Shown here piece after piece: positions 21,122-40,052 of a DNA stretch of 64,000 nt. The translations under genes were made by a program, and so were the position numbers. Position 1 is the first letter of the stretch; each line of letters starts with the position of its first letter. Origin of the DNA: Rhodoplanes serenus (GTDB taxonomy: Bacteria > Pseudomonadota > Alphaproteobacteria > Rhizobiales > Xanthobacteraceae); the NCBI GenBank assembly GCA_009720755.1, contig WNKV01000001.1, forward strand, positions 409,437-473,436, written 5' to 3'. The notes beneath the pieces are model-generated. The model saw only the letters and a list, made by a program, of their open reading frames with translations. It was not told where the DNA came from and ran no database searches.

Positions 21122-21493
21122 TCACGCGCCGTCACGTCGAGGCGAAGCCGCTCGGTAGAGGATGCGCTCGGCCGCCCGGATGCTTCCCGCCTCGCGGGCG
21201 GCCTCCGCCCAGACCGAGATCGGAAAGTCGCCGGTGAAGAGAATGTCGCGCTCGATCCTCATGCCGAAGGGCAGGACGATCGATGCCAGTTCCTCGAGCG
21301 AGAAGCTGCCCAGTTCGGGATAGCCGAGATCGGCGAGGCCGAAGGGGGTGTCGCCGTCCGCGTTCCGTTCGGTCGCGAGCCAGACGCCTTCGCCCAGCGG
21401 GTTGAAGAACTTGACGACGGGCACATGGTCGGCGCCGCGTTCAAGGCCATTGGCGAGCAGGCGCTCGCGCAGGTCGTCGGTCAGGAGGATCAT
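21122..21493 (-). CDS. DUF2958 protein
   Basis: A 123-aa DUF2958 protein (MILLTDDLRERLLANG; VVKFFNPLGEGVWLATERNADGDTPFGLADLGYPELGSFSLEELA). The family is usually carried beside ArdC on conjugative elements; its activity is unknown. The 4-bp overlap with ardC (21490-21493) shows co-translation. The PVVKFFNP and GDTPFGLADLG motifs are the family's most conserved parts. Confidence 0.88.
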   Translation of the reverse strand: MILLTDDLRERLLANGLERGADHVPVVKFFNPLGEGVWLATERNADGDTPFGLADLGYPELGSFSLEELASIVLPFGMRIERDILFTGDFPISVWAEAAREAGSIRAAERILYRAASPRRDGA

Positions 21494-22443
21494 GCTGCCC
21501 TCCTGTCGTTCGCGGGTTCGCCGGCGATGTCCGTTTCGGGGAGGAACGCCAGCAGCCAATTGGCCGCCTTGCTCGCCTGCGACGCGGCGCGGACGATGGC
21601 GCGATTGTCTTCGCGCAGCACGTCCAGCCACGAGCCGATGTAATCGGCGTGGCGCACCGTCGGAGTGATGCCGAGCGAGGCGCAGCAAAAGGCCGCGTTC
21701 ATCTCGGCGACGAGTTCCTCAAAGGCGTACTTCTTGGAGCCGAAGGAGCCGGTGAGGTCGCGGCCGAGACGGGACGAATGGCCCGTCGCATGGCCGAGCT
21801 CATGCAGGGCCGTGCGATGCCAGTTGATCGTCTCGAAATACGCCTGAGGCGGCGGCACCTGAACGGAGTCGTGCGCCGGCACGTAGAAGGCGCGATCGCC
21901 GCCGATGCGGAAGTCGATACCCGTCGCCTTGATCAGCGCCTCGACGCGCGGCTCGATCAGGCCGGGCTCCGGCGCAGGCGGCGCGACGGCAAGGCCGTCG
22001 GGCAGATCCTCGCACTGCGCGACGTTGAACACGGTGAAGCGCTTCAGGAACGGAATCGCCTGCGCTTCCTCGCCGGTCTCCTGCGCGCGCTTCTTTTCGT
22101 CGTCGGGGATGAAGCGGTCGGCGTAGACGACGGTGGTGCCGCGCTCGCCCTTGCGGACATGGCCGCCGAGGGACAGCGCCTGGCGGAAGGTTAGCCAGCT
22201 TTGCACCGGAAAGCCGTGCTCGATGACCGCGCCCCAGAGGATCAGCACATTGATCCCGGAATAGGCGCGGCCGGTGGCGGCATTCGCCGGCATGGCGACC
22301 GGCGCTTTCGCAGCGGCCGTTCCCCAGGGTTGGACCCAGGGCACGCGGCCGGCCTCCAGCTCGGCGATAATCTTGTTGGTGATGTCGTCGTAAAGGCTCG
22401 CCCGGTTGGTCCCGGCGCGAGCGTTGCGGCCATGTCTGGACAT
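21490..22443 (-). CDS. ardC: Antirestriction protein ArdC (ssDNA-binding + zincin-like)
   Basis: A 317-aa ArdC. The N-terminal ssDNA-binding domain (YDDITNKIIAELEAGRVPWVQPWG; AYSGINVLILWGA) is followed by a zincin-like metallopeptidase domain with TALHELGHATGHSSRLGRD and, downstream, the third ligand region FEELVAEMNAAF. ArdC protects incoming single-stranded DNA from host restriction during conjugation. It heads a two-gene operon with DUF2958 and is preceded by the third radC-like leader, which fits that motif's known association with antirestriction genes. Confidence 0.9.
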   Translation of the reverse strand: MSRHGRNARAGTNRASLYDDITNKIIAELEAGRVPWVQPWGTAAAKAPVAMPANAATGRAYSGINVLILWGAVIEHGFPVQSWLTFRQALSLGGHVRKGERGTTVVYADRFIPDDEKKRAQETGEEAQAIPFLKRFTVFNVAQCEDLPDGLAVAPPAPEPGLIEPRVEALIKATGIDFRIGGDRAFYVPAHDSVQVPPPQAYFETINWHRTALHELGHATGHSSRLGRDLTGSFGSKKYAFEELVAEMNAAFCCASLGITPTVRHADYIGSWLDVLREDNRAIVRAASQASKAANWLLAFLPETDIAGEPANDRRAA

Positions 22444-22731: not shown

Positions 22732-23775
22732 TCACGAGGATGCGTTGGCCGCTGCATCGAGCTGATGCATCGAGTCAAGAATAAGGTCGAAGCTGGGGGG
22801 CTCGTCAAAAATCATCGCGGCGGTTTTAGCGTAGTCACGGCGAAGCGCGTCAATCATGCCCTCGACAGGGGCAATCGCGAATGTGCCGGGCTGCGCTGAC
22901 GCAAGATCGAAGTCCGGCCGGTCGAAGAACATGCGCGCGTGGCGCAGGCAGTCGCGTGCAAGCTCCAGGTCGCCCAACGCGTCCTTCCCTGCTTGCGACG
23001 CGAGCAGCTGGTGCAGGTCGTAATAATGGCGCGAAATACGCTGGCCTTCCTGGCGCAGCACGCCGCGCCGCTCATACCATCGCCGCAGGCCGTGCGCGAT
23101 CACCACCTTGTCCCAGAAGGTTCGGCCTGGCTCGATGGTCGTGACGTTGGGGACCGAAAGGTCCAGGTCGGGAGTTTCGTCGGCAATGTATGGCCTGATC
23201 AGGACCGGACGGTTGGGATCGAGCGCTGACTTCGCACCTGACTCGATCCGCACGGCCGGGCGCACATAGCCGTCGTCGCGCGGTTCAACCTCGGGATACC
23301 AGAGAAGCAAAGTCTGCCCCTCGGAATCGGCCTGATCGATCTCCACGCGCCCGGCTCCGCCCGTGGCCTCGGCCAGGAGCCCGGCGAGGCTCTCCCGAAG
23401 CGGACCGGTGACAAAAGCGCGGCAGGCGTCACGGATGGCGTCAAGCCTGGCGCGGCGCTTCTTGCCGGAGAGCGCCTCCAGTTCCTCGGCGGTTGCCGCT
23501 TGTTCGAGATCGTCACGGAAGACCGTAACGTCGATGTCCTCTGAAAACCGGTTGATGAGGCCATAGGCTTTGGACAGCGAGGTGCCGCCTTTGAAGAGAA
23601 GGCGCGGCCGGTCTGCGGGGAGGCGGTGATAGAGCGCGTCGAGCGTCCAGCAGACCCAGAAGTCCTTTTCGATGTTGCCGATCGGTGCGCCGAGCCGATT
23701 GGCAGTGGAGAGGAACAGATCGAGGCGGTCGCGCGCCGGGGCTCGGATGACCGCTGCATAAGCCTCGGCGGTCAT
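22732..23775 (-). CDS. abiEii: AbiEii/AbiGii nucleotidyltransferase toxin
   Basis: A 347-aa toxin of the AbiEii family. The nucleotidyltransferase core is clear: RLLFKGGTSLSKAYGLINRFSEDIDVTVFR, with the GGTSLSK turn and the D-x-D metal pair. A further conserved part is FWDKVVIAHGLRRWYERRG, then RISRHYYDLHQLL. AbiE toxins block phage growth by inactivating tRNA acceptor ends or related nucleotidyl transfer. It overlaps the antitoxin stop by 4 bp (23772-23775). Confidence 0.9.
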   Translation of the reverse strand: MTAEAYAAVIRAPARDRLDLFLSTANRLGAPIGNIEKDFWVCWTLDALYHRLPADRPRLLFKGGTSLSKAYGLINRFSEDIDVTVFRDDLEQAATAEELEALSGKKRRARLDAIRDACRAFVTGPLRESLAGLLAEATGGAGRVEIDQADSEGQTLLLWYPEVEPRDDGYVRPAVRIESGAKSALDPNRPVLIRPYIADETPDLDLSVPNVTTIEPGRTFWDKVVIAHGLRRWYERRGVLRQEGQRISRHYYDLHQLLASQAGKDALGDLELARDCLRHARMFFDRPDFDLASAQPGTFAIAPVEGMIDALRRDYAKTAAMIFDEPPSFDLILDSMHQLDAAANASS

Positions 23776-24434
23776 GTCTTCGCGCCCTCGCCGACGATCA
23801 GCGGACGCAGGAACTCCTGCATCCAGATGGGCAGAGCCGAGAGCCCTTCGCGCAGATCATCGTGAATGCCCTGGCCGTGGTCCGGATCGGCGAGCAGTCG
23901 GCGCAGAATCTCGGTGACACGGGCGCGTTCGTCGTTCTCCTTCAGCACGTCCTGAAGCCAGTGCAGAGCCTGGACGACGCGCATCGCCGGCCGGCCGGCC
24001 CAGTAGAGCCGGCTTGCTGCGGCTGCCTTGAAGTGGATTTCCTGGTTGCCGAGCTTGATGGGCTTTAGTCGGGCATCGACCAGGACCTCGATGCGGGCGG
24101 GCACGGCGGTGGTCAGACCGAGATCGTTGGCAGCCGTCATGCCGTCCACGACGAAGCGGGCCTTGTCGCGCCGGGCGACGGCGCGGATGACGGCGCGATA
24201 GTCCGGCACGGTGGGACGGCCGGTCAGGCTGTTGACGCTCGGACGATCATAGAGGCCGCGATCGATTCGCCGGAGCTCGCCTGCAGCCGCCAAGCGCTGC
24301 AGCGATTTATCGACGGCGCCGCGGCCGGCGAGATCGGCGAAATCGCTGGGCGTCCACACCTCGCCCGGCTGTTCGGCGATGCGGGCGAGCAAGCGGCTGC
24401 GGAGGTCGGAACCCGGCTGGTGAGCATCGGTCAT
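23772..24434 (-). CDS. abiEi: AbiEi-type antitoxin (DUF6088 family)
   Basis: A 220-aa antitoxin and autorepressor. The N-terminal winged helix is LLARIAEQPGEVWTPSDFADLAGRGAVDKSLQRLAAAGELRRIDRGLYDRP. The C-terminal toxin-binding domain follows (FVVDGMTAANDLGLTTAVPARIEVLVDARLKPIKL). The ATG at 24434 abuts the first operator repeat and has no Shine-Dalgarno, so the mRNA may be nearly leaderless. The frame also allows a TTG at 24500, but that start would translate both operators. Confidence 0.82.
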   Translation of the reverse strand: MTDAHQPGSDLRSRLLARIAEQPGEVWTPSDFADLAGRGAVDKSLQRLAAAGELRRIDRGLYDRPSVNSLTGRPTVPDYRAVIRAVARRDKARFVVDGMTAANDLGLTTAVPARIEVLVDARLKPIKLGNQEIHFKAAAASRLYWAGRPAMRVVQALHWLQDVLKENDERARVTEILRRLLADPDHGQGIHDDLREGLSALPIWMQEFLRPLIVGEGAKT

Positions 24435-24498
24435 GTCCGAAATATGCCGCATGTTTCGGACGATGAGAAGCGTCCGAAGAATGCTACATTTTTCGGAC
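24435..24498. promoter_or_regulatory. Twin operators of the AbiE pair
   Basis: Two inverted repeats share one design, GTCCGAAA-N11-TTTCGGAC. The first (24435-24461) is perfect. The second (24472-24498) has one inner mismatch (GTCCGAAG). They are offset by 37 bp. AbiEi antitoxins bind inverted repeats in their own promoter cooperatively, so this should be the autoregulatory site. Confidence 0.75.
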
Positions 24499-24567
24499 AA
24501 CCCTTTTTAAGGAGGGACATTGCGGAATGCCGGGTTGCCTTCGGCCCCTCCAGATGAGAGCCACCCC

Positions 24568-24597
24568 TTGACTCCGTCTGATGTAAGATTATCTTAC
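24568..24597 (+). promoter_or_regulatory. Promoter with 15-bp palindromic operator for the ACP-XRE-ImmA operon
   Basis: A consensus-like -35 TTGACT (24568-24573) is followed after 16 bp by TATCTT as a weak -10. The perfect palindrome GTAAGAT-T-ATCTTAC (24583-24597) covers that -10, so a bound XRE dimer would block it. The strong ribosome binding site AAGGAGGT (24611-24618) lies 5 nt before the first start codon. Confidence 0.65.
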
Positions 24598-24623
24598 CAC
24601 GTGTCGGACCAAGGAGGTACTTC

Positions 24624-24929
24624 ATGGATCCCGCCGCACTGAAAGAGAAGCTGATCGCCGTCCTCGGCCAGATTCAGGTCGACAGCGGCCTCGAATGCCC
24701 AGCGATGACCGGCGCCACCAAGCCGGTCGAGAACTTGCCGAAGTTCGATAGCAAGGTCTGGCCGGTCGCGACCACGATCCTCGCTACGGAGATCGGTGCG
24801 ACGATCCCCAATGACGTGAACATCTTCGTCGACGAGACGACCAAGCTCCCGCGCTCGATTGACGAGACCGCTGCCTTCGTCTGCGAGCTGCTCAAGAAGG
24901 AAAGCGCGAAAGAAGCGGCGGCGGCATGA
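24624..24929 (+). CDS. Acyl-carrier-protein-like protein
   Basis: A 101-aa protein with the layout of an acyl carrier protein. FDSK puts a serine at residue 43 where ACPs carry phosphopantetheine (DSL). After it come a helix (VWPVATTILATEIGA) and IP at Ser+18/+19, the same spacing as in E. coli AcpP, and the last helix RSIDETAAFVCELL. The loop before that helix is several residues longer than in AcpP. It is the first gene of the operon, with a strong ribosome binding site, and overlaps the XRE gene by 4 bp. A holo-ACP synthase gene closes the cluster at 29503. The cargo is unknown; a stand-alone DUF that only resembles ACP is the alternative. Confidence 0.72.
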   Translation: MDPAALKEKLIAVLGQIQVDSGLECPAMTGATKPVENLPKFDSKVWPVATTILATEIGATIPNDVNIFVDETTKLPRSIDETAAFVCELLKKESAKEAAAA

Positions 24930-25291
24930 CTGAACTCGATTCCGGCAAGCGAATGCAGATCGCAGAGCGGCTGAAAGAGGCGCGCAAACTCGCGGGCCTG
25001 TCGCAAAGCCATGTAGCGAAGATGCTCGGTCTGCATCGCCCCTCCATCAGTGAGATGGAGGCCGGCAACCGGCGCGTTTCGGCCGACGAGCTCGCCCGGC
25101 TTGCCGAGACCTATGACGTCAGCGTCGCCTGGCTCCTCGGCGAAGCGCCCGAGACGCTCGACGCCCAAGACCCGCGGCTCGAGCTCGCAGCGCGCGAACT
25201 CTCCAAGCTCAAGCCCGACGATCTGGAACGCCTGCTCAAGTTGCTGGCCGCCATGCGCAGCGATTCCACCGCGAACGGAGGCAATCGCTGA
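24926..25291 (+). CDS. XRE-family transcriptional regulator
   Basis: A 121-aa HTH_XRE regulator (MQIAERLKEARKLAGLSQSHVAKMLGLHRPSISEMEAGNRRVSADELARLAETYDVSVAWLLGE). The C-terminal part (LELAARELSKLKPDDLERLLKLLAAMR) is a likely dimerising helix. It is directly followed by an ImmA/IrrE protease gene with a TGATG stop-start overlap. In such pairs the protease cleaves the repressor when triggered, usually by DNA damage. The 15-bp palindrome at 24583 is its likely operator. Confidence 0.85.
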   Translation: MTELDSGKRMQIAERLKEARKLAGLSQSHVAKMLGLHRPSISEMEAGNRRVSADELARLAETYDVSVAWLLGEAPETLDAQDPRLELAARELSKLKPDDLERLLKLLAAMRSDSTANGGNR

Positions 25292-26196
25292 TGAACATCA
25301 TGCGCACCACCACGCCCAGTTTCAATCGCCGCGCCCTGGCAACCCAGGCGATGCAGGCCGCCGCGGCGACGCGGGCAAAGGCGAAGCTCGACCAAGTCGG
25401 TCCGATCTGCATTTATGGGCTGTGCGAGACGCTGGGCGTCGCGGTGCGCTTCAACAACATCAACATGGAAGGGATGTACCAGCGCGGCATCCCACCGCGC
25501 ATCCATCTCTCCGCCCGACGACCGCTGCCGCGGCGCGCCTACAATTGCGCGCACGAGCTCGGCCATCACGTGTTCGGCCATGGGTCGTCGATCGACGAGC
25601 TGCGTGAGGACGCGAAGGCGCAGCCCTGGGAGGATCCAAAGGAGTTTCTGGCTGACACCTTCGCCGGCTTTGTCCTCATGCCGATCATCGGACTGCGCCG
25701 CGCCTTCTCGGTCCGAGGCTGGACCCCGGAAACGGTGACCCCGGCGCAGATGTTCACCATCGCCTGCGAGTTCGGTGTTGGCTATGCGACGCTCCTGACC
25801 CACCTCTCGGCAGGCGTGAATATGCTGTCGCGCGGCCGCGCCGCTGCCTTGCACCGTGTCACGCCCAAGTCGCTTCGCATGCACATTCTCGGCGCACTGA
25901 CGCCCGAGCCGCTGATCGTCACCGACCGCCATCGCGCTGCGCCCACCCTGGACGCTGAGGTCAAGACGCTGCTCCTGCTGCCGCGCGGAACGGAGGTGGC
26001 GGGGGACGGTGGACTCGCCTTCGAACGCGACCTCGAAGGCGGACGCCTGTTTCGGGCAGTGAAACCGGGAATCTTCCAGGCCGCCGCCGGTGACTGGGCC
26101 GTCTTCGTGCGCATCGCCCCGATCCAGAAAAACGAGCCCTACGGTTATATCGGTCTCGCGCAATATCGCCATCTGGAGGAGGACCCGGATGAGTAA
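25291..26196 (+). CDS. ImmA/IrrE-family metallo-endopeptidase
   Basis: A 301-aa zinc protease. The HELGHHVFGH motif (H88, E89, H92) is followed by the third-ligand region EFLADTFAGFVLMP. ICYGLCETLGVAVRF-like sequence before it is typical for the family. The last 100 residues form a separate, beta-rich domain (PLIVTDRHRAA; GGRLFRAVKPGIFQAAAGDWAVFVRI) that could sense a signal. It is coupled to the XRE gene upstream and overlaps the thymidylate-synthase-like gene by 8 bp, so it should control expression of the enzymes that follow. Confidence 0.85.
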   Translation: MNIMRTTTPSFNRRALATQAMQAAAATRAKAKLDQVGPICIYGLCETLGVAVRFNNINMEGMYQRGIPPRIHLSARRPLPRRAYNCAHELGHHVFGHGSSIDELREDAKAQPWEDPKEFLADTFAGFVLMPIIGLRRAFSVRGWTPETVTPAQMFTIACEFGVGYATLLTHLSAGVNMLSRGRAAALHRVTPKSLRMHILGALTPEPLIVTDRHRAAPTLDAEVKTLLLLPRGTEVAGDGGLAFERDLEGGRLFRAVKPGIFQAAAGDWAVFVRIAPIQKNEPYGYIGLAQYRHLEEDPDE

Positions 26197-27043
26197 GGCC
26201 AAGATGCTCGCGGCGCCGCCCCCGATGGTGATCGATGACACCAATCTCTCGCGCGCTTGGGCGCGACTGCTGTTGCAGGTCCTCAACGGAGCCGGAACCG
26301 AGGTTGCTCCTTTGATTCTGAGCCTTAGTGGCTTCACAGAGAACGGCGCCGCCATCGAAGATCCAGCCGTGCGCCAGGCCCTCGATCGGCTCCTCAAGCG
26401 CAAGGGGCGACTCGTGGTCGACGACGTCGCGTTCACGATCTTCCCGCAGCGCCTCTGGGAGATGTCGCGCGGTGACCGGTCCCGCCTTTTCATCCTTTAT
26501 CGCGCGACATTCCCGCGCTGGCAGGCCATGAACCGCAAAGCCAATGGCCGCGGCCTGTATTTCGAGCGCATGGTCATGTATGGGCGCGGCCCGCACGACG
26601 GCAATCAACTGGAGTGGATTTTGTCTCAATTTAGTTCGCGGACGGGCGTGCGCCGCTCGATGCTGCAGGCCACCACCTTCGATCCGGCTCGTGACCATGT
26701 CGCGAGCGCGCAGTTGGGCTTTCCGTGCCTCCAGCAGGTGAGCTTCGAGCCGACTGCAGCCGGACTCGTCACCAACGCCTTCTACGCCACCCAGCAAATC
26801 TTTGATAAAGCCTATGGCAATTATCTCGGCTTGGCCCAACTCGGAGCCTTCATGGCCCGTGAGATGGGCATGCCGCTGGCGCGCCTAAACGTCATGGTGG
26901 GGATCGCTAAGCTCGAGCGGATCACCAAGAGCGACGCGGATTTTGCTCCGCTCGTCGCCGCCGCGCAGGCCCTCGCGGCGCCGCCCGCCGCGCCGTCGGC
27001 GCGGCCCGCCATCGCTCCTGCGACAGCAGGAGCGATGCTTTGA
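26189..27043 (+). CDS. Thymidylate-synthase-fold enzyme, divergent
   Basis: A 284-aa protein whose core (FPCLQQVSFEPTAAGLVTNAFYATQQIFDKAYGNYLGLAQLGAFMAREMG) aligns with the catalytic part of thymidylate synthase. The nucleophile Cys180 and Asn211 are 31 residues apart, as Cys146 and Asn177 are in E. coli ThyA. The phosphate-binding Arg166 and Ser167 positions read Ala200 and Thr201, and Asp169 reads Gln203, so ordinary dUMP binding is unlikely. Relatives include dUMP and dCMP hydroxymethylases of phages with modified DNA. Its neighbours point to an altered pyrimidine or DNA-base chemistry. The tail is Ala/Pro-rich. Confidence 0.75.
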   Translation: MSKAKMLAAPPPMVIDDTNLSRAWARLLLQVLNGAGTEVAPLILSLSGFTENGAAIEDPAVRQALDRLLKRKGRLVVDDVAFTIFPQRLWEMSRGDRSRLFILYRATFPRWQAMNRKANGRGLYFERMVMYGRGPHDGNQLEWILSQFSSRTGVRRSMLQATTFDPARDHVASAQLGFPCLQQVSFEPTAAGLVTNAFYATQQIFDKAYGNYLGLAQLGAFMAREMGMPLARLNVMVGIAKLERITKSDADFAPLVAAAQALAAPPAAPSARPAIAPATAGAML

Positions 27044-28194
27044 GTTCGAGGTCGCCCAAAGTCCCCACAAAACGTCCGCGCGGTCGCCCTCCCAAGTCTC
27101 GTCCGACCGCAGCCAATGCATCCCTGCCTATGGAACTGCCAGTCGCCGTTCGGCCGGCGGCAGCGTCGACGGCGCTTACGCCGATCGTGCTGCGGCACCT
27201 TGCGCCGGCCAAAGCGTCAGAGGTCTATGAGAGCTATTGGCGTTTTGCCGCCGAACGGCAGGCGGTGTTCTTTCGCCGCGTGCGCGGCGAGACGCGTCCC
27301 TGGACCAAGAATCCAGTGCTGGCGATCTACAAGTTCACCAACGCCTATCGTGCGTCCGACCGGGTCAGCCAATTTCTTATCCGGCATGTCATCTATCGCG
27401 ACGACCTCCCAAGGTCACCACACGAAGTGTTCTTTCGCATTCTGCTGTTCAAGCTGTTCAACAAGATCGAGACTTGGGAGCTTCTCGAACGCGCGCTCGG
27501 CCCGATCACCTTCGAGGACTATAGCTTCGTTGCCTATGATGCGGTGCTCTCGCGCGCAATGCAGACCGGCCATCGCATCTACTCGGCCGCGTACATTATG
27601 CCGCCCGGCAGTCGCGCCTTCGGACGATCGGCCAAGCACCAGAATCATCTGTTGCTGCTCGAACGGATGATGGCGGATCGGCTTGCCGAGCGGCTGACCG
27701 AGATCCGCACGATGCAGGATGGTTTCGAGATGCTGCGCGCCTATCCGACGATTGGTGACTTCTTAGCGTACCAATTCATCACCGACATCAATTACAGCGA
27801 GCTCACCGATTTCAGCGAAATGGACTTCGTGGTGCCCGGCCCCGGCGCACGCGACGGCCTGCGCAAATGTTTTGTCGATCCGGGCGGCCTGAACGAGCCA
27901 GAGCTGATCCGACTGATGGCGGACCTTCAGGAGCAGGAGTTTGAGCGGCTGGGCATCGACTTCCAATCGCTCTGGGGGCGGCGACTGCAGCTGATCGACT
28001 GCCAGAACCTGTTCTGCGAGGTCGACAAATATGCGCGCGTGGCGCACCCGCAGATCGCGGGAAAGACCGGCCGTGTCCGCATAAAGCAGAAGTTCGAGCC
28101 GACCCCAGAGCCGATCGAGCTCTTCTATCCCCCCAAATGGAAGCTCAACGACAAGATCCGCGTAGACGCGCCACATCGCGCTGCAGCGGGTTGA
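27040..28194 (+). CDS. 5-hmdU DNA kinase helical domain / aGPT-pyrophosphorylase-like protein
   Basis: A 384-aa protein of the family annotated as 'nucleotide kinase domain' or HMUDK helical domain, related to the glutamyl/putrescinyl-thymine pyrophosphorylases predicted from phages with hypermodified thymine. Key stretches: YWRFAAERQAVFFRRVRGETRPWTKNPVLAIYKFTNAYRASDRVSQFL, EVFFRILLFKLFNKIETWELLE, FSEMDFVVPGPGARDG and LQLIDCQNLFCEVDKYARVAHP. The fold resembles DNA glycosylases, and no P-loop is seen. The basic N terminus (KRPRGRPPKSR) looks like an AT-hook. The start is TTG at 27040, overlapping the previous stop by 4 bp. Confidence 0.75.
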   Translation: MSSRSPKVPTKRPRGRPPKSRPTAANASLPMELPVAVRPAAASTALTPIVLRHLAPAKASEVYESYWRFAAERQAVFFRRVRGETRPWTKNPVLAIYKFTNAYRASDRVSQFLIRHVIYRDDLPRSPHEVFFRILLFKLFNKIETWELLERALGPITFEDYSFVAYDAVLSRAMQTGHRIYSAAYIMPPGSRAFGRSAKHQNHLLLLERMMADRLAERLTEIRTMQDGFEMLRAYPTIGDFLAYQFITDINYSELTDFSEMDFVVPGPGARDGLRKCFVDPGGLNEPELIRLMADLQEQEFERLGIDFQSLWGRRLQLIDCQNLFCEVDKYARVAHPQIAGKTGRVRIKQKFEPTPEPIELFYPPKWKLNDKIRVDAPHRAAAG

Positions 28195-28211
28195 CGCCGA
28201 AGGAGGCGAGC

Positions 28212-29117
28212 ATGGATTTCAGAAGCTATCAGAAGGAGGCATTGCGCACTGATCGTGTGCCCGCCCGCGATGGCGCCGACGATGCCGCATCGCTGATCGT
28301 GCCGATGCTCGGTCTCGCAGGTGAGACGGGTCAGCTGCTCAGCGAGTACAAGAAGCATCTGCGCGACGGCGAAGCGCATCGCCTGTTCAAGGAGCGCGTG
28401 TCAGAGGAACTGGGCGACCTGCTCTGGTACATCGCCAATGTCGCCAGTAAGTTCGATCTCTCGCTCTCCGACATCGCTGCCGCTAACTTGGCTAAAGTCA
28501 AGCAGCGCTGGGCCAGCGAACGCACCGAGCCGCTTACCTTCGATGCCGAGCTCCCCGAAGGCGAGCGGCTGCCGCGCAAGTTCGAAGTTGAGCTCATCGA
28601 TGTGGAGGGCGAATCGCGCCAGCGGGTGCGTGTTCTGATTGACGGTACACCATTCGGCGCGGAACTCACGGACAACGCCTACGATCCTGACGGCTATCGC
28701 TTCCACGATGTCTTCCACTTTGCCTATGCGGCCGTGCTCGGCTGGTCGCCGATCACGCGCGCCTTGCTCCGGCGAAAACGCAAGAGCCAGCCGCTGCTCG
28801 ACGAGGTCGAGGATGGCGGCCGCGCTGCCGTCATCGAAGAAGGCGTGGCGGCGCTTGCCTTCGACTATGCGCGACGCCACCGCTTCCTCGACGGCGTCGC
28901 GGCTCTCGATTTCCAGCTTCTGCGCACGATCAAGGATATGACGTCCCATCTGGAAGTGCGGCAATGCACGACCGGCGAGTGGGAGCAGGCAATCCTGCAA
29001 GGGTTCAAGGTGTGGCGCGCCGTACTCGCCGCGCGCGGCGGTCGCATCGCCGTCGATCTCGACGCGCGCCGCATAAGTTTTCTCGGCCCGTCCGGCCGTC
29101 AGGAGCCGCGCGCGTGA
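28212..29117 (+). CDS. MazG-type nucleotide pyrophosphohydrolase with extra C-terminal domain
   Basis: A 301-aa protein. The first 100 residues are MazG-like: LGLAGETGQLLSEYKK, then VSEELGDLLWYIA (E66-x2-D69). Gln41 stands where the second metal-binding Glu is usually found, so activity may differ. The C-terminal 180 residues (FHDVFHFAYAAVLGWSPITRALLRRKRKS; DEVEDGGRAAVIEEGVAALAFDYA) form a second helical domain with paired acidic residues, perhaps another MazG-like unit. MazG enzymes hydrolyse (d)NTPs and would remove a canonical or modified nucleotide. It ends tail-to-tail with acpS, overlapping by 19 bp. GGAGGCGAGC precedes the ATG. Confidence 0.78.
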   Translation: MDFRSYQKEALRTDRVPARDGADDAASLIVPMLGLAGETGQLLSEYKKHLRDGEAHRLFKERVSEELGDLLWYIANVASKFDLSLSDIAAANLAKVKQRWASERTEPLTFDAELPEGERLPRKFEVELIDVEGESRQRVRVLIDGTPFGAELTDNAYDPDGYRFHDVFHFAYAAVLGWSPITRALLRRKRKSQPLLDEVEDGGRAAVIEEGVAALAFDYARRHRFLDGVAALDFQLLRTIKDMTSHLEVRQCTTGEWEQAILQGFKVWRAVLAARGGRIAVDLDARRISFLGPSGRQEPRA

Positions 29118-29503
29118 GTCTCCGCCCCGAGTGCGAGAACGCTCGCCATTGCGAGGCCGCTAGTGTGGCTGATGCTGAGCCGCCAGGCGGTCACCCCCAA
29201 TGCTGCTGCAGCCTTCGCCGCGCCGCCGGAGAGCCGCACCTCGGGCGTGGTGCCCGGCGCCCGGTGAATTACCACATCGGTGAACGCCACGCCCGCACCG
29301 AAACCCGTTCCGAGCGCCTTGAGCACTGCCTCCTTGGCGGCGAACCGCCCCGCCAAACGCTCTATCCGATCGGCTCCAACGCCAATCTCGTCGAGCTCCG
29401 CCTGGACGAAGCAACGCGGAATCAGTGGGTCGCGCGGATCGTCGATCCAGCGCCGCATCTCGGCGACGTCCACAAGGTCAATGCCGTGTCCGATGACGCT
29501 CAC
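29099..29503 (-). CDS. acpS: Holo-ACP synthase (4'-phosphopantetheinyl transferase)
   Basis: A 134-aa AcpS-type transferase, which moves phosphopantetheine from CoA onto a carrier-protein serine. Both signature parts are intact: VIGHGIDLVDVAEM with the metal-binding Asp, and RLAGRFAAKEAVLKALGTGFG with the catalytic Glu. The start is taken as GTG at 29503, since VSVIGHGIDL aligns with the family N terminus. It is convergent with the operon that begins with an ACP-like gene, so the two may form a carrier-activating pair; a chromosomal AcpS would be expected elsewhere. Confidence 0.85.
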   Translation of the reverse strand: MSVIGHGIDLVDVAEMRRWIDDPRDPLIPRCFVQAELDEIGVGADRIERLAGRFAAKEAVLKALGTGFGAGVAFTDVVIHRAPGTTPEVRLSGGAAKAAAALGVTAWRLSISHTSGLAMASVLALGAETHARGS

Positions 29504-29605
29504 AAGATCCGTCTTTCCTGATCGAGTGTTTCGTCTCTTCAATTGTCGAGTGTCGATTATCACTGTAGGCTGAATTGAGCGAAGGGCAATACGATTCGGC
29601 AGGCG

Positions 29606-29914
29606 ATGCACCCAGGAACGGCTGTCCGGCAGGACTGCATTAAAAAGAACGGGTTGAGCGTCACCGACGCTGCCCGAATCCTCGGCGTCGATCGGCAGAC
29701 CCTCAGCAACTTGCTGAACGCCCGGTCGGGCATTTCGCCGGAGATGGCCGTCCGGCTGGAAAAGGCGTTCGGCACGCCCGCGCGCGAATGGCTGATCCGG
29801 CAGCTCGACTACGAGTTGGCCGAGGTCATGCGCAGGGCCAAGAAAATCAAGGTTGAGCCTTTCGAGCCAACGGCCACGGACGGCGGGGGGAACGATGAAC
29901 GCCGTCGAGATTGA
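29606..29914 (+). CDS. HigA-type XRE regulator, orphan
   Basis: A 102-aa HigA-like protein (MHPGTAVRQDCIKKNGLSVTDAARILGVDRQTLSNLLNARSGISPEMAVRLEKAFGTPAREWLIRQLDYEL). HigA antitoxins normally follow a higB toxin gene, but the 102 bp upstream hold none. It overlaps the methylase gene by 20 bp, so it more likely works as a controller of the restriction-like operon that follows. Confidence 0.85.
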   Translation: MHPGTAVRQDCIKKNGLSVTDAARILGVDRQTLSNLLNARSGISPEMAVRLEKAFGTPAREWLIRQLDYELAEVMRRAKKIKVEPFEPTATDGGGNDERRRD

Positions 29915-31170
29915 GGAGGCCATATCGAAACTCGCCGAGCAGCCGTTCGACGCCGAGGAGTTCCCCTATCTCTTCCTGCAGGCCTTCGGAAACAAGGAAA
30001 CGACCCTCAAACGACTGCGCAAAGGCGAGTCGAACAAATCCGACCTTGGCGGTGTCCTTCAGACCAACAACATCCATATCGCCGTCGCCGCCCCCGGCAC
30101 GGTGACGCGCACCCTTGCCGCACTGAAGGCCAGCCCGGCGACGACGCGGGCGAAGGCGAAATTCGTTCTGGCGACGGACGGCGACGCGTTCGAGGCCGAG
30201 GATCTGGTGTCGGGTGAGACGGTCGCCTGCGCCTATGCCGACTTCCCCGACCATTTCGGCTTCTTTCTGCCCCTTGCCGGCATCACCACCGTCAAGCAGG
30301 TCCGTGACAGCTCCTTCGACATCCGCGCCACCAGCCGCCTCAACCGGCTCTATGTCGAGCTTCTGAAGGACAATCCCGAGTGGGGCACGGCCGAGCGCCG
30401 GCCCGACATGAACCACTTCATGGCGCGGCTGATTTTCTGCTTCTTTGCCGAGGACACCGACATCTTCGCCAAGCCGCTCCTGTTCACCTCGACGGTCGAG
30501 CAGATGAGCGCCAAGGACTCGTCTAATACCCATGAGGTGATCGGCACACTGTTCCGCGCCATGAATATGAAGCATGCAGAGCGGGCGGCGGCGAACATCC
30601 CCCGCTGGGCCGACCAGTTTCCCCTATGTGAACGGTGGCTTGTTTTCCGGCACCATGGACGTGCCGCGCTTCAGTCGGATCGCGCGCTCCTACCTTCTCC
30701 ACATCGGCGGCCTCGACTGGAAAAAGATCAACCCGGACATCTTCGGCTCGATGATTCAGGCCGTGGCCGATGACGAGGAGCGCGGCGCGCTCGGGATGCA
30801 CTACACCAGCGTCCCAAACATCCTGAAGGTGCTCAATCCGCTGTTCCTCGACGATCTGCGTGCGCGACTCGACGAGGCGGGGGACAATCCCCGCATGTTG
30901 CTGAATCTGCGCAAGCGCATGTCGCGGATCAGGGTCTTTGATCCGGCCTGCGGCTCCGGCAACTTCCTTGTCATTGCCTACAAGCAGATGCGGGAGATCG
31001 AGGCCGAGATCAACAAACGTCGGGGCGAGCCGGACAGGCGGAGCGAAATCCCGCTGACCAACTTCCGGGGGATTGAGCTGCGCAGCTTCCCGGCCGAGAT
31101 TGCGCGTGACCTGAGCCCCTGAAGTTCCTCCAAAAATGAGTAGAGTCCGTCCACCGAGGGAGACGGACGA

Positions 31171-31437
31171 ATGAAGAAGTCGCGGTTCAACGAAGAGCAG
31201 ATCATCGCGATCCTGCGGGAGCAGGAAGCGGGTGCGAAGACGGCAGATGTTTGCCGCAAGCACGGGATCAACACGGCGGCGTTCTACCAATGGAAGGCGA
31301 AGTACGGCGGCCTCGAGGTATCGGAGGCGCGGCGGCTGAAAGCGCTGACGGACGAGAATGCGAAGCTGAAGAAGCTGCTTGCTGAAGCAATGCTCGACAA
31401 CGCGATGCTGAAGGACCTCAATTCAAAAAAATGGTGA
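31171..31437 (+). CDS. IS3-family transposase OrfA
   Basis: An 88-aa HTH protein (MKKSRFNEEQIIAILREQEAGAKTADVCRKHGINTAAFYQWKAKYGGLEVSEARRL) with a leucine-zipper-like end (LKALTDENAKLKKLL), standard for OrfA. It ends at an A7 run (31425-31431) where a -1 slip on A-AAA-AAA would fuse it to OrfB and make the full transposase. Confidence 0.92.
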   Translation: MKKSRFNEEQIIAILREQEAGAKTADVCRKHGINTAAFYQWKAKYGGLEVSEARRLKALTDENAKLKKLLAEAMLDNAMLKDLNSKKW

Positions 31438-32369
31438 CGCCCGCCGTGAAGCGGCAAGCTGTGGCTCACCTTTGTGCGTCCTACGAGGTGAGCCAGCGGC
31501 GGGCGTGTTCCGTGATTGGCGCCGACCGCACGTCGATGCGCTATCGCAGCCGGCGTCCTGACGATGCCGCGTTGCGCGCGCGCCTGCGTGAGCTTGCAGC
31601 GCAACGCCGCCGCTTTGGCTATCGCCGCCTCCAAATCCTGCTACGCCGCGAGGGCACCCGCGTGAACCACAAGAAGCTCAGAAGGCTCTATCGCGAAGAA
31701 CGCCTTCAGGTCCGCCGCCGCGGCGGTCGCGAGAAAGCCATGGGAACACGCGCACCGCTGGTATTACCGCAAGGAGCGAACCAACGCTGGTCGCTTGACT
31801 TCCTGAGCGACCAACTGACCAACGGTCGGCGCTTTCGCGTGCTGGCGGTCGTCGATGATTTCACGCGCGAATGCTTGACCCTCGTCGCCGATACGTCGCT
31901 TTCGGGCAGACGCGTCGCGCGTGAACTGGATGCCATCGTCGCCAAACGCGGCAAGCCATGCACCATCGTCAGCGACAACGGCACCGAGTTGACCAGCACC
32001 ACCATCTTGAGCTGGTCGCAGGCGATGCAGGTCGAATGGCACTACATCGCGCCAGGCAAGCCGACGCAGAACGCGTTCATCGAGAGCTTCAACGGCCGTC
32101 TGCGCGATGAGTTTTTGAACGACACGCTGTTCGGCTCGCTCGATCACGCCCGTGAAGCTCTTGCGCTCTGGATGGACGATTACAACACCGTCAGGCCGCA
32201 CAGCGCGATCGGCAACGTGCCGCCGGCGCTCTACGCCAAACTCAGCGATCCCTGGAAGCAACGGGACGGGTCGCTTGAGCTGTCATGGGGCTCCGCGCCC
32301 CGTCCCGTTGCATCACCGAGCCAACACGGCTCAAATGACGAACGGATTCTACTCGTCGGCGGCGGATAG
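31431..32369 (+). CDS. IS3-family transposase OrfB (rve integrase core)
   Basis: A 312-aa DDE transposase. An HTH_21-like start (AVAHLCASYEVSQRRACSVIGADRTSMRYRSRR) leads to the rve core: NQRWSLDFLSDQL (first Asp), TIVSDNGTELTS (second Asp) and QNAFIESFNGRLRDEFLN (Glu), then YNTVRPHSAIGNVPP. It is probably made as an OrfAB fusion by -1 frameshifting at the A7 tract; the ATG at 31431 may give free OrfB. The frame looks intact, so the element may be active. Confidence 0.92.
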   Translation: MVTPAVKRQAVAHLCASYEVSQRRACSVIGADRTSMRYRSRRPDDAALRARLRELAAQRRRFGYRRLQILLRREGTRVNHKKLRRLYREERLQVRRRGGREKAMGTRAPLVLPQGANQRWSLDFLSDQLTNGRRFRVLAVVDDFTRECLTLVADTSLSGRRVARELDAIVAKRGKPCTIVSDNGTELTSTTILSWSQAMQVEWHYIAPGKPTQNAFIESFNGRLRDEFLNDTLFGSLDHAREALALWMDDYNTVRPHSAIGNVPPALYAKLSDPWKQRDGSLELSWGSAPRPVASPSQHGSNDERILLVGGG

Positions 32370-34016
32370 AAGGGCTCAGGTCACCCGCCTCGCCCTCATC
32401 ATCGCCGAGTATCAGTGCGACGTGCTCTATCGCGGCCAGAAGGAAGCCCTGCGGGACTTCCTGCCGCTCGATGCCGAGAACTGGATCACCTGCGGCAACG
32501 CCCTGCGGCTCGATTGGCTGAGCATTTGCCCACCGACCGGGACAGGTGTGAAGCACCGGGCCGATGACCTGTTTCGCACGCCGCTCGATCAGGCACAGAT
32601 CGACTTCGAGAACGAAGGCGGCGAAACCTACATCTGTGGCAACCCGCCATATCTCGGCAGCAAGAAACAGACCGACGAACAGAAAAATGACCTTGGCGCG
32701 CTTTTTGATGGACGCATTAAGAAGTGGAAGTCGTTGGACTATGTATCTGGATGGTTCATCAAGGCCGCCGACTACGGAACCAGGACCAAAACGACGGCCG
32801 CGTTTGTGGCAACAAACTCCATTTGCCAAGGCCAGCACGTTCCGATTCTCTGGCCCGTAATCTTCGCGACTGGCAGTAAGATCGTCTTCGCCCACACGTC
32901 CTTCAAGTGGGCGAACCTTGCGAGTCATAATGCCGGTGTGACCGTCGTCATTGTTGGTATTTCCAACACATATGGACTTCCGAGGCGGCTTTATTCAATC
33001 TCTGATACTGAGGAACAAACCGTTGAGCGCAAGGAAGTTGCCAACATCAATGCGTACCTTGTCCCCGCGGCGAACATTGAGGTTGAGCAAGCAGCGAATC
33101 CAATGCAAGGCATGGTGCCGATGCAATTCGGAAACCACCCGTATTATGGCGCGGCACTAATTTTCTCAAATGACGAAGCATATCAAATCATAAAGCAAGC
33201 GCCGGATGCAGCACGTTTCATCCGACCATTTTATGGCTCAACTGAGTTCATCGACCGCTCCCCTCGCGCTTGTTTTTGGATTTCCGATGAAGATGCCTGT
33301 GAAGCGTTGAAGCTGAGTCCCATCGCTGAGCGAGTTGCGGTGGTCAAAGCATCTCGCATAGCGGCGGAAAATGGAGAAACCAGCGCAAGAAGCAAAGGCA
33401 ATGGCGGCGGCGGCAAGAGAAAGAAAGAGGATGCCAGCGCGAGAAAGCTGGCTGATACGCCGTGGCGTTTCCGCGAGCAGGTGATGTCAGAGACTCAGAC
33501 AATCATTGTGCCCCGCGTGAGCTCCGAGAATCGGCCCTATCTTCCAGTTGGGTTGCTTGAGCCACATTGCGTTGTGCAGGAAAAAGCCTTTGCAATGTAC
33601 GACGCCCCGCTCTGGAGCCTAGCGGTCATCGCTTCACGCTTGCATTGGGTTTGGATTGCCACAGTCTGCGTTCGACTTCGTACCGATTTTTTGTATTCCA
33701 ACACTCTCGGCTGGAACACCTTTCCGGTTCCCACGCTCACTGAGAAGAACAAGGCCGACCTGACCCGCTGCGCCGAGGACATATTGCTGGCGCGCGAAGC
33801 GCATTTTCCGGCGACCATCGCCGAGCTTTACGATCCGGACAAGATGCCGGACGACCTGCGCGAGGCCCACGAGCGCAATGACGAGGTGCTTGAGCGCATC
33901 TATATCGGCCGCCGGCTTCGCAACGACACCGAGCGGCTGGAAAAGCTGTTCGAGCTTTATACCAAAATGGCCGTCTCACCTGGCGCGGCGAAGAAAAGCA
34001 AGGCGGAGGCGCGTGC

Positions 34017-36080
34017 ATGACCGACGAGAAGAAATCCATCCCCTCTGTCTCCGTCACCTATGCGCGCAATGGCAGCTCAACCAAAGCCAATGCGCTCGGC
34101 ATGAGGCCGATGCAGGAGCGCGCCTATGAGAAACGGGGCGAGCAATATCTTCTCATCAAGTCGCCGCCGGCCTCGGGGAAGAGCCGCGCGCTCATGTTCA
34201 TCGCCCTCGACAAGCTGCACAATCAGGGCTTGAAGCAGGCGATCATCGTGGTGCCGGAAAAGGCTATCGGCGCGAGCTTCAATGATGAAGCCTTGTCCAA
34301 GTTCGGCTTCTGGACCGACTGGACGGTCGCGCCCAAGTGGAACCTCTGCAACGCGCCGGGCTCGGACAATGGCGGGAAGGTGAATTCCGTCGAGGCGTTC
34401 CTGAAAAGCGGCGACAAGGTGCTGGTCTGCACCCATGCCACCTTCCGCTTCGCCGTGGACAGGTTCGGGGTGGAAGCCTTCGATGACCGGCTGATCGCGG
34501 TTGACGAATTCCATCACGTCTCTGCCAACCCCGACAACAAGCTCGGCCTGCATCTCGGCCAGTTCATCGCTCGCGACCGCGTGCATATCGTGGCGATGAC
34601 GGGCTCCTATTTCCGGGGCGACGCCGAAGCCGTGCTCGCCCCGCAGGACGAGTCGAAGTTCGATACCGTCACCTACACCTACTATGAACAACTCAACGGC
34701 TACGAATATCTCAAGCAACTCGACATCGGTTACTTCTTCTACAACGGCCCGTATACGGACGACATCCTGAAGGTGCTCGACCCGGCCGAGAAAACCATCA
34801 TCCACATTCCGAATGTCAATTCCCGCGAAAGCATGGGCGACAAGATCAAGGAGGTGGAACACATCCTTCACGAGCTTGGCGAATGGGAGGGCCGTGATCC
34901 CGTAACCGGCTTCCAACTGGTCAAGACCCCAGAGGGCCGCGTTCTTCGCATCGCCGACCTGGTTGACGACGATCCCGCCAAGCGCGACCGCGTGACCGCT
35001 GCGCTGAAGGACCCAGCGCAGAAGAACAACCGCGACCATGTGGACATCATTATCGCGCTTGGGATGGCGAAGGAAGGATTAGACTGGATCTGGTGTGAGC
35101 ACGCCCTGACGGTCGGCTATCGGTCGAGCCTGACCGAGATCGTGCAGATCATCGGCCGCGCCACCCGCGACGCGCCGGGCAAGGTGCGCGCTCGCTTCAC
35201 CAACCTGATCGCCGAGCCCGACGCGTCGGAAGAAGCCGTCACCGAGGCCGTGAACGACACGCTGAAGGCCATCGCTGCCAGCCTTCTCATGGAGCAGGTG
35301 CTTGCGCCGCGCTTCGAGTTCAAGCCGAAGAACCCGCAGAGCGGCCCGACGCCGGGCTTTGACTATGGCGAGGGCGGCTACGATCCGAACAAAACCAATG
35401 TCGGCTTCAGCGAGGAGACGGGCCAGTTCCAGATCGAGATTAGGGGCCTTGTCGAGCCGAAGAGCGAGGAGGCGCAACGCATCTGCCAGCAGGACTTGAA
35501 CGAGGTGATTGCCGCCTTCGTGCAGGACAAGACCATGATCGAGCGCGGCCTGTTCGATCCCGAGCTGGTGCCGGAGGAGCTGACTCAGCTTCACATGGGT
35601 AAGATCATCAAGGACAAATATCCCGAGCTGGATGAGGAAGATCAGGAGGCCGTGCGCCAGCGCGCCGTCGCGGCCCTGAATCTCACGCAGAAAGCCAAGG
35701 AAGTCGCGCTTGGGGGAGCCGAGGGTGACGGTGAAAAGAGCCTCAATACCGCCTTCATTGAGGGCGTCCGCAAATACGCAATGGATGTGCGCGAGCTGGA
35801 CATCGACCTGATCGACCGCATCAATCCGTTCGGCGAAGCCTATGCCATTCTCGCCAAGACCATGAGCGAGGAGAGCCTGAAGCAGGTCGCAGCCGTGATC
35901 GGCGCCAAGCGTGTCAATCTGACCATTGAGGAGGCGCGTGAGCTTGCCAAACGGGCCCTAAAGTTCAAGCAAGAGCGAGGTCGGCTGCCCTCGATCACCT
36001 CGGCCGACGCTTGGGAAAAGCGTATGGCCGAGGGCGTGGCGTTCCTTCAACGCATGAAGGCGGAGGCGGCACGTGCCTAA
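34017..36080 (+). CDS. SF2 DEAD/DEAH-box helicase of a restriction-like operon
   Basis: A 687-aa superfamily-2 helicase. Walker A is SPPASGKSRAL, motif II VDEFHH (DEFH variant), motif III AMTGSYF, and motif VI QIIGRATRDAPGKVRARF. The C-terminal 300 residues are acidic and helical (DEEDQEAVRQRAVAALNLTQKAKEV) and may bind partners. It overlaps the methylase stop by 4 bp and the next gene by 8 bp, so it belongs to one operon. In such systems the helicase translocates DNA for cleavage. With the methylase broken, its activity should be self-threatening unless the system is silent. Confidence 0.85.
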   Translation: MTDEKKSIPSVSVTYARNGSSTKANALGMRPMQERAYEKRGEQYLLIKSPPASGKSRALMFIALDKLHNQGLKQAIIVVPEKAIGASFNDEALSKFGFWTDWTVAPKWNLCNAPGSDNGGKVNSVEAFLKSGDKVLVCTHATFRFAVDRFGVEAFDDRLIAVDEFHHVSANPDNKLGLHLGQFIARDRVHIVAMTGSYFRGDAEAVLAPQDESKFDTVTYTYYEQLNGYEYLKQLDIGYFFYNGPYTDDILKVLDPAEKTIIHIPNVNSRESMGDKIKEVEHILHELGEWEGRDPVTGFQLVKTPEGRVLRIADLVDDDPAKRDRVTAALKDPAQKNNRDHVDIIIALGMAKEGLDWIWCEHALTVGYRSSLTEIVQIIGRATRDAPGKVRARFTNLIAEPDASEEAVTEAVNDTLKAIAASLLMEQVLAPRFEFKPKNPQSGPTPGFDYGEGGYDPNKTNVGFSEETGQFQIEIRGLVEPKSEEAQRICQQDLNEVIAAFVQDKTMIERGLFDPELVPEELTQLHMGKIIKDKYPELDEEDQEAVRQRAVAALNLTQKAKEVALGGAEGDGEKSLNTAFIEGVRKYAMDVRELDIDLIDRINPFGEAYAILAKTMSEESLKQVAAVIGAKRVNLTIEEARELAKRALKFKQERGRLPSITSADAWEKRMAEGVAFLQRMKAEAARA

Positions 36081-39975: not shown

Positions 39976-40052
39976 TGGCGCACCCAACAGGATTCGAACC
40001 TGTGACCTCCACCTTCGGAGGGTGGCGCTCTATCCAGCTGAGCTATGGGTGC
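39976..40052 (-). tRNA. tRNA-Arg (anticodon CCG), complete
   Basis: Minus-strand cloverleaf. Acceptor GCACCCA pairs with TGGGTGC, and the gene encodes CCA (39976-39978). The D arm is GCTCAGCTGGATAGAGC. The anticodon stem CCACC/GGTGG holds loop CTCCGAA, giving anticodon CCG. The T arm is CAGGTTCGAATCCTG. It lies on the element side of the junction and differs in its acceptor stem from the half tRNA at 40181-40224. Confidence 0.93.

What the first reader, a model, noticed from the sequence alone, without database searches (positions are those of the whole stretch)
24568..29503. Candidate new system: carrier-protein-linked nucleotide or DNA-base modification operon under XRE/ImmA control
Seen: six genes overlap or nearly touch (24624-29117): ACP-like, XRE, ImmA/IrrE, thymidylate-synthase fold, 5-hmdU-kinase/aGPT-pyrophosphorylase-like, MazG-like. 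A convergent holo-ACP synthase ends the cluster. Known: TS-fold hydroxymethylases, HMUDK/aGPT proteins and MazG belong to hypermodified-thymine chemistry in phages; AcpS activates ACPs; ImmA cleaves XRE repressors after a trigger. Inference: the carrier could load an acyl or aminoacyl group for a modified pyrimidine, with MazG clearing the normal nucleotide. It could be a damage- or phage-induced defence, or a DNA-marking system of the ICE. I know of no described system with this set.
Basis: partly seen in the sequence, partly recalled or inferred. Interest (0 to 1): 0.93.

Follow-up and report, generated by a model that had tools for sequence, protein, structure and literature searches.

The report
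Carrier-protein nucleotide-modification operon under ImmA control
This is a conserved set of genes, found on bacterial chromosomes and conjugative plasmids, that likely uses a small carrier protein to build an unusual uracil- or thymine-type nucleotide and would be switched on by DNA damage or virus attack, probably as a defence against viruses.

Summary
Six tightly packed genes (24624-29117) plus a convergent acpS (29099-29503) are present, and the set is conserved. In the best 80 of 416 genome loci encoding a relative of the HMUDK protein, 68 carry the five-gene core ACP-XRE-ImmA-TS-HMUDK, all 68 in the same order and strand; 47 carry all seven families. The first gene has a predicted acyl-carrier fold, and its Ser43 is kept in 75 of 76 homologues. 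Operon AcpS forms a clade apart from housekeeping AcpS (60 rows, support 100/98) and lies near 55 of 74 ACP-positive but 0 of 23 ACP-negative HMUDK loci. A 15-bp palindrome overlaps the predicted promoter and recurs at the ACP start in 63 of 68 loci. XRE/ImmA resemble CapH/CapP.

Corrections: the window's HMUDK protein has no kinase domain; its best structural match (VIA-align) is a phage 5-phosphomethyl-dU glycinyltransferase. The TS-like protein is closest to CMP hydroxymethylase.

Mechanism (inferred): repressor cleavage induces a carrier-dependent modified pyrimidine that harms infecting phage. Chemistry and defence are untested. I found no published system with this set, but two key predictive papers were not held.

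The parts
24568..24595 (+). promoter-like site TTGACT-16-TATCTT
   Evidence: consensus scan, (2 found on both strands of 24450-29700, 0.7 expected)
24583..24597 (+). operator palindrome GTAAGATTATCTTAC overlapping the -10 hexamer; likely XRE binding site
   Evidence: single match in window, 0 of 100 shuffles; within 2 mismatches around the ACP start in 63 of 68 ACP-positive loci, none in the 12 loci without a detected ACP
24624..24929 (+). acyl-carrier-type protein (101 aa), Ser43 at the start of helix II
24926..25291 (+). XRE/CapH-like repressor (121 aa)
   Evidence: HTH_3 1.3e-15; PADLOC capH 7.8e-20
25291..26196 (+). ImmA/IrrE (M78) metallopeptidase, HExxH present
   Evidence: PADLOC capP 2e-9; HExxH in 70 of 70 relatives
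26189..27043 (+). thymidylate-synthase-fold enzyme, closest solved relative CMP 5-hydroxymethylase
   Evidence: catalytic Cys and Asn 87 of 87 aligned
27040..28194 (+). HMUDK_hel protein (384 aa), TTG start, no P-loop domain
28212..29117 (+). MazG-like pyrophosphohydrolase with MazG_C domain
   Evidence: PF18722 1.6e-78, PF03819 7.9e-5
29099..29503 (-). operon-specific holo-ACP synthase (AcpS)
   Evidence: PF01648 1.1e-13; clade apart from housekeeping AcpS

Best explanation
This is a conserved mobile operon (five-gene core in 68 of 80 related loci) that likely charges its own acyl-carrier-type protein with a phosphopantetheine arm and uses it, with a thymidylate-synthase-like enzyme, to make a modified pyrimidine nucleotide, and it would be induced by ImmA cleavage of the XRE repressor, probably to stop infecting phage. 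Shown here: the gene set, its conservation and order, the operator, the near-invariant carrier serine, the separate AcpS clade and the kept catalytic residues of AcpS. Inferred, step by step: (1) XRE sits on the palindrome over the -10 box; single-stranded DNA made during infection or damage activates ImmA, which cuts XRE. (2) AcpS attaches 4'-phosphopantetheine to Ser43 of the carrier. (3) The TS-like enzyme puts a one-carbon group (hydroxymethyl or methylene) on C5 of a uracil nucleotide. (4) The carrier delivers a thiol-bound group to that carbon, helped by the HMUDK_hel protein, which resembles an enzyme that replaces the phosphate of 5-phosphomethyl-dU; the phosphate would come from a kinase, fused in some relatives and absent in this copy. 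(5) MazG removes the normal or unwanted nucleotide. (6) The product poisons or marks DNA made during infection.
Against: No acyl-adenylating or acyl-transfer gene was recognised among the 38 neighbour clusters present in 3 or more loci (representatives of 9 were run against Pfam, the rest judged by eye, and singletons were not annotated), so the cargo is unknown. The carrier gene always sits directly before XRE-ImmA, which also fits a regulatory role. Fifteen of 68 ACP-positive loci show no AcpS nearby, three of them with under 2 kb of sequence downstream. The TS-like enzyme has lost the Arg and Asp found near the active site in thymidylate synthase (alignment). HMUDK_hel similarity is structural only, with no Foldseek hit at E 0.001 or better and no profile hit to the phage transferase, and helical folds reach similar Z by chance. 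Two IMG/VR loci carry ACP-XRE-ImmA-TS-MazG with no HMUDK. Nothing here shows phage protection.
Confidence: 0.42

Rival explanations
1. The carrier protein is part of the sensor, not of the chemistry: ACP, XRE and ImmA would form one regulatory unit, with the phosphopantetheine arm or its acyl state reporting infection or metabolic status to ImmA, while TS, HMUDK and MazG do the nucleotide work alone.
For: ACP directly precedes XRE in 68 of 68 loci and, judged by eye, in five divergent ones. In L110 ACP, XRE and ImmA are all missing while TS, HMUDK and MazG stay. In two loci the carrier stays although HMUDK is absent.
Against: No ACP-XRE-ImmA unit was seen in front of another effector: of 6 genomes found by ACP-anchored searches (own genome included), 5 have TS next to it and the sixth (G104) has only ACP-XRE. 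The passages I saw on CapH + CapP mention no such third protein (PMC13373217).
Confidence: 0.25
2. Nucleotide depletion or pool poisoning: on induction MazG, with dCTP-deaminase-like genes in some loci, removes or unbalances dNTPs, and the TS-like protein acts on dUMP without any hypermodified product.
For: MazG in 69 of 80 loci; a gene of the dCTP-deaminase-like cluster within 7 kb in 20 of 68 ACP-positive loci; dNTP depletion is a known defence strategy (recalled).
Against: It leaves no task for the carrier, its own AcpS and HMUDK_hel; none of the seven window proteins is a dCTP deaminase; 8 of 68 ACP-positive loci lack MazG, one of them with only 27 bases left downstream.
Confidence: 0.17
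3. Self-marking: the operon hypermodifies the DNA of the mobile element that carries it, for protection in new hosts.
For: Near-identical island in another genus and copies on conjugative plasmids; the same families modify phage DNA (PMC6449724, PMC5977210, passages).
Against: An ImmA/XRE-repressed operon would not keep DNA marked at rest (inference). The only restriction gene I recognised among recurrent neighbours is an MmeI-type gene in 3 loci, two of them the window's near-copies; most clusters were judged by eye.
Confidence: 0.1

Closest known systems
Phage thymidine hypermodification (phages ViI, M6, phiW-14)
   Same: TS-type enzyme making 5-hydroxymethyl-dU, 5-hmdU DNA kinase and further transferases (PMC6449724, PMC5977210, passages); HMUDK_hel relatives occur in 482 of 50,697 phage records.
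   Different: Here in bacterial mobile DNA, repressor-controlled, with a carrier protein and AcpS; the carrier and this TS have no match in the same phage records; no kinase domain in this copy.
DefensePredictor systems with thymidylate synthase and 5-hmdU kinase domains (PMC13092281)
   Same: Both domain types are in E. coli transcription units that lowered phage plating; MazG and MazG-C are listed there as predicted only.
   Different: No carrier protein or ImmA is mentioned in the main text (0 hits). The gene sets, and whether both domains share one system, are in a figure and supplement that I could not see.
CapH + CapP control module of CBASS and other immune operons
   Same: HTH repressor plus M78 protease directly upstream of the effector genes; PADLOC capH 7.8e-20 and capP 2e-9.
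   Different: None of the other five window proteins matches a PADLOC model; a carrier protein precedes the repressor.
MilA-type CMP 5-hydroxymethylase
   Same: Closest solved structure to the TS-like protein by profile, E 7e-4.
   Different: Acts on CMP for an antibiotic (recalled); here Asn replaces the Asp of that enzyme, and the neighbouring Arg and Asp are changed (alignment).
Bacillus phage SP-15, dihydroxypentyl-uracil
   Same: An acyl-carrier-protein-reductase-like gene overlaps a hydroxymethyl-dUMP synthase gene by one base (PMC5977210 Table 2, passage), a possible precedent for acyl chemistry on uracil C5.
   Different: ThyX-type synthase; no carrier protein or AcpS is annotated in the 50 kb read; a lead only.

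Membership tests
Acyl/peptidyl carrier proteins | four-helix carrier fold | tested here: met
Acyl/peptidyl carrier proteins | serine for phosphopantetheine at the start of helix II | tested here: met
   Ser43 in 75 of 76, just before predicted helix 45-57
Acyl/peptidyl carrier proteins | sequence match to PF00550 | tested here: inconclusive
   none for the window protein; 2 of 43 members, best E 0.0026
Acyl/peptidyl carrier proteins | 4'-phosphopantetheine attached in vivo | not testable with these tools
   needs mass spectrometry
CapH/CapP-type control module | HTH repressor plus HExxH M78 protease next to an operator | tested here: met
   binding of XRE to the palindrome itself is inferred
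CapH/CapP-type control module | ssDNA-triggered cleavage of the repressor | not testable with these tools
   needs purified proteins
Phage thymidine hypermodification pathway | TS-superfamily enzyme acting on C5 of uracil | tested here: inconclusive
   catalytic Cys and Asn 87 of 87; Arg and Asp changed (alignment)
Phage thymidine hypermodification pathway | 5-hmdU kinase with P-loop | tested here: not met
   window HMUDK protein has only HMUDK_hel; 11 of 80 relatives carry a P-loop motif in the same ORF, so this copy is not filed as a member
Phage thymidine hypermodification pathway | modified base in DNA | not testable with these tools
   needs LC-MS of nucleosides
DefensePredictor TS/5-hmdU-kinase systems | same gene set | tested here: inconclusive
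   domains named in the main text, gene sets not visible; no DNA match of two HMUDK variants in 20,395 E. coli records
dNTP-depletion defence (dCTP deaminase type) | dCTP deaminase or dGTPase in the operon | tested here: not met
   no such family among the seven window proteins; cluster present near 20 of 68 ACP-positive relatives

The most novel reading that the evidence does not exclude
Carrier-protein immunity: a new class of inducible system in which a dedicated, phosphopantetheinylated carrier protein delivers or captures a group on the 5-methylene carbon of a uracil nucleotide, so that a hypermodified pyrimidine, or even a pantetheine-linked nucleotide adduct, is made during infection. 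It would be the first link between carrier-protein (fatty-acid or polyketide-type) chemistry and DNA-base or nucleotide modification in defence.
Probability: 0.4. Interest if true: 0.94.

Novelty: new variant of a known kind. Interest (0 to 1): 0.82.

Why it matters
If the carrier takes part in the chemistry, cells would use fatty-acid or polyketide-style tethering to build a nucleotide weapon, a route that my paper searches did not turn up. Even if the carrier is only regulatory, this is an operon type that PADLOC does not list (no model matches its carrier, TS, HMUDK, MazG or AcpS proteins), found in records titled as Proteobacteria, Cyanobacteria, Acidobacteria and Planctomycetes and on conjugative plasmids, with a 15-bp operator kept within two mismatches in members of each of these groups. 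The operon is small and its end products can be sought directly by mass spectrometry.

Tried and rejected
Chance adjacency of acpS was rejected: 55 of 74 ACP-positive against 0 of 23 ACP-negative HMUDK loci, and a separate clade. The idea that acpS is the host's only AcpS, or the TS its only ThyA, was rejected. A match-by-name reading of the HMUDK protein as a kinase was rejected for this copy. A regular-expression count of MazG motifs gave 0 of 69 because I wrote the pattern wrongly; a per-column count followed and I make no claim from motifs. Looking for the validated E. coli relative by DNA gave nothing. A profile search for a link from HMUDK_hel to the phage transferase gave only noise. 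Single-sequence searches of the TS and of the MazG protein against the PDB gave nothing. An ACP-anchored search in the class of G284 found 0 of 78, and that genome's contig ends inside XRE, so it shows nothing. The first viral search with the single ACP protein found no relative. A second protein search with the ACP alignment listed only close homologues with no precomputed Pfam domain among the 120 shown of 778. None of the ten paper searches gave a matching system; three papers wanted for prior predictions and chemistry were not held, so absence from print is not shown.

Limits: the 80 loci are the best 80 of 416, so the survey leans to close relatives. Some are near-copies: L042 shares 99.99% over 21 kb with the window and L053 99.8% over 8.9 kb. 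L114 and L117 (and L028, L119, L120 outside the 80) were given a carrier by eye from a small ORF with a DS motif before XRE; they are not in the 68 but are in the 74, which also counts viral L118. Of the other ten without a carrier, L040, L111 and L112 end at a contig edge and L056 holds only 2.7 kb upstream. L048's carrier ORF looks frameshifted. Of the 68, five had no operator in the range used (L045, L048, L080, L102, L113); L080 has a one-mismatch copy inside its over-long ORF, just past the range. The AcpS tree has few columns, and four of its rows are under half filled. L053's acpS loses its 5' end at an IS junction.
Full report
What is there. The window holds six plus-strand genes from 24624 to 29117 and a convergent acpS at 29099-29503. 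Junctions overlap by 4, 1, 8 and 4 bases through HMUDK, then a 17-base gap to MazG. A promoter-like site, TTGACT-16-TATCTT, lies at 24568-24595, and a perfect palindrome GTAAGATTATCTTAC at 24583-24597 covers its -10 box; it is the only such site in 64 kb at up to two mismatches, and 0 of 100 shuffles had one.

Conservation. I aligned nine HMUDK proteins and scanned GTDB species genomes: 416 relatives, the best 80 kept. Within 5 kb of HMUDK, ACP was found in 68 of 80, XRE 70, ImmA 70, TS 74, MazG 69, AcpS 55; the five-gene core in 68, all seven in 47. In 68 of 68 the core is on one strand in the order ACP-XRE-ImmA-TS-HMUDK, and in 59 of 68 MazG follows on the same strand. The records include Alpha-, Beta- and Gammaproteobacteria, Cyanobacteria, Acidobacteria, Planctomycetota and others by their titles. 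Of the 12 without a detected ACP, L040, L111 and L112 end at a contig edge, L114 and L117 have a divergent DS-motif ORF before XRE, L056 and L063 hold under 2.8 kb upstream, and L095, L098, L107, L110 and L115 lack it in the sequence held. The other direction was tested too: ACP-anchored searches found 5 of 297 and 2 of 385 genomes (own genome in both); of the 6 different genomes, 5 carry XRE, ImmA and TS beside it and one (G104) has only ACP-XRE. On plasmids, all 4 records with the ACP (of 72,556) also have HMUDK, and all 4 are typed conjugative.

Control. XRE and ImmA score best against PADLOC capH (7.8e-20) and capP (2e-9). HExxH is present in 70 of 70 ImmA proteins. The operator recurs with 0, 1 or 2 mismatches in 31, 23 and 9 of 68 loci (63 in all) around the ACP start; one further copy, in L080, falls just outside the range; none was found in the 12 loci without a detected ACP. 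In the literature CapP is activated by ssDNA and cleaves CapH, de-repressing immune operons (PMC13373217, passages), and the related PprI behaves alike (PMC10904395, passages). That this ImmA does so is inference.

Variants. Two IMG/VR contigs (L152, L154) carry ACP-XRE-ImmA-TS-MazG without HMUDK, with what look by eye like terminase and portal genes on the two sides in L152 (the ACP hit in L154 is weak, 0.0041). Loci without a carrier often pair HMUDK with genes of the Nmad2 and ThsB-type TIR clusters (8 of the 10 TIR-cluster loci and 7 of the 10 Nmad2-cluster loci are not among the 68; one member of each was checked by Pfam). The ACP and TS have no match in 50,697 phage records, while HMUDK_hel relatives occur in 482.

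Reading. The carrier, its own transferase and a pyrimidine C5 enzyme travel together, so I commit to carrier-dependent nucleotide modification under damage control, with defence as the likely purpose. Support for defence: AbiE beside the operon and the cluster holding its AbiEii within 7 kb in 11 of 68 relatives, a type IIG enzyme (split by an IS) and a PDC-S06 gene in the window, a SIR2 gene and an ABC-three-component system beside plasmid copies, and the report that thymidylate synthase and 5-hmdU kinase domains occur in systems validated in E. coli (PMC13092281, sections 5 and 7 read, other passages; the text does not say whether in one system). Against: no cargo enzyme was recognised, and the fixed ACP-XRE-ImmA order allows a sensor role for the carrier. 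I rate novelty as a new variant of a known kind because thymine-type hypermodification and defence systems with TS and 5-hmdU-kinase domains are in print, while a carrier protein in such a setting was not found in my searches; if the carrier is catalytic, the kind itself would be new.

Noticed in passing
window 29853-34020: An MmeI-type (type IIG) restriction-modification gene is split by what looks like an IS element (transposase-like genes 31171-32369); described only.
   Followed up: partly
window 22732-24500: AbiEii and AbiEi genes directly upstream, divergent from the operon; two 27-base palindromes lie in the AbiEi start region (24435-24461 and 24472-24498).
   Followed up: partly
window 37294-39900: PADLOC candidate defence protein PDC-S06 (2.6e-194), followed by tRNA-Arg at 39976-40052 where GC rises from about 0.62 to 0.72, a possible island end.
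   Followed up: no
window 21490-22443: ArdC-type anti-restriction protein with a zincin-like domain on the minus strand.
   Followed up: no
L053 (Bradyrhizobium sp. BTAi1) 12417-12418: Near-identical island in another genus; there the sequence jumps from window 29456 to 31172, so the 5' end of acpS is missing and abuts the IS element.
   Followed up: partly
L028, L114, L117: A papain-like cysteine peptidase gene (Pfam checked in L028) sits between ImmA and TS in a divergent branch of the system.
   Followed up: partly
L152 5733-6278, L154 2844-3419, and L092, L093, L097, L100, L103, L104: A small gene that looks by eye like a DUF1643-type protein sits next to the system in two viral contigs and six cyanobacterial loci; role unknown.
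   Followed up: no
L054, L064, L065, L068, L071, L088: A protein with a metallophosphatase domain and a weak second TS-like match (L064 checked: Metallophos 7.5e-14, Thymidylat_synt 9.2e-4, under its cut-off) recurs beside the operon.
   Followed up: no
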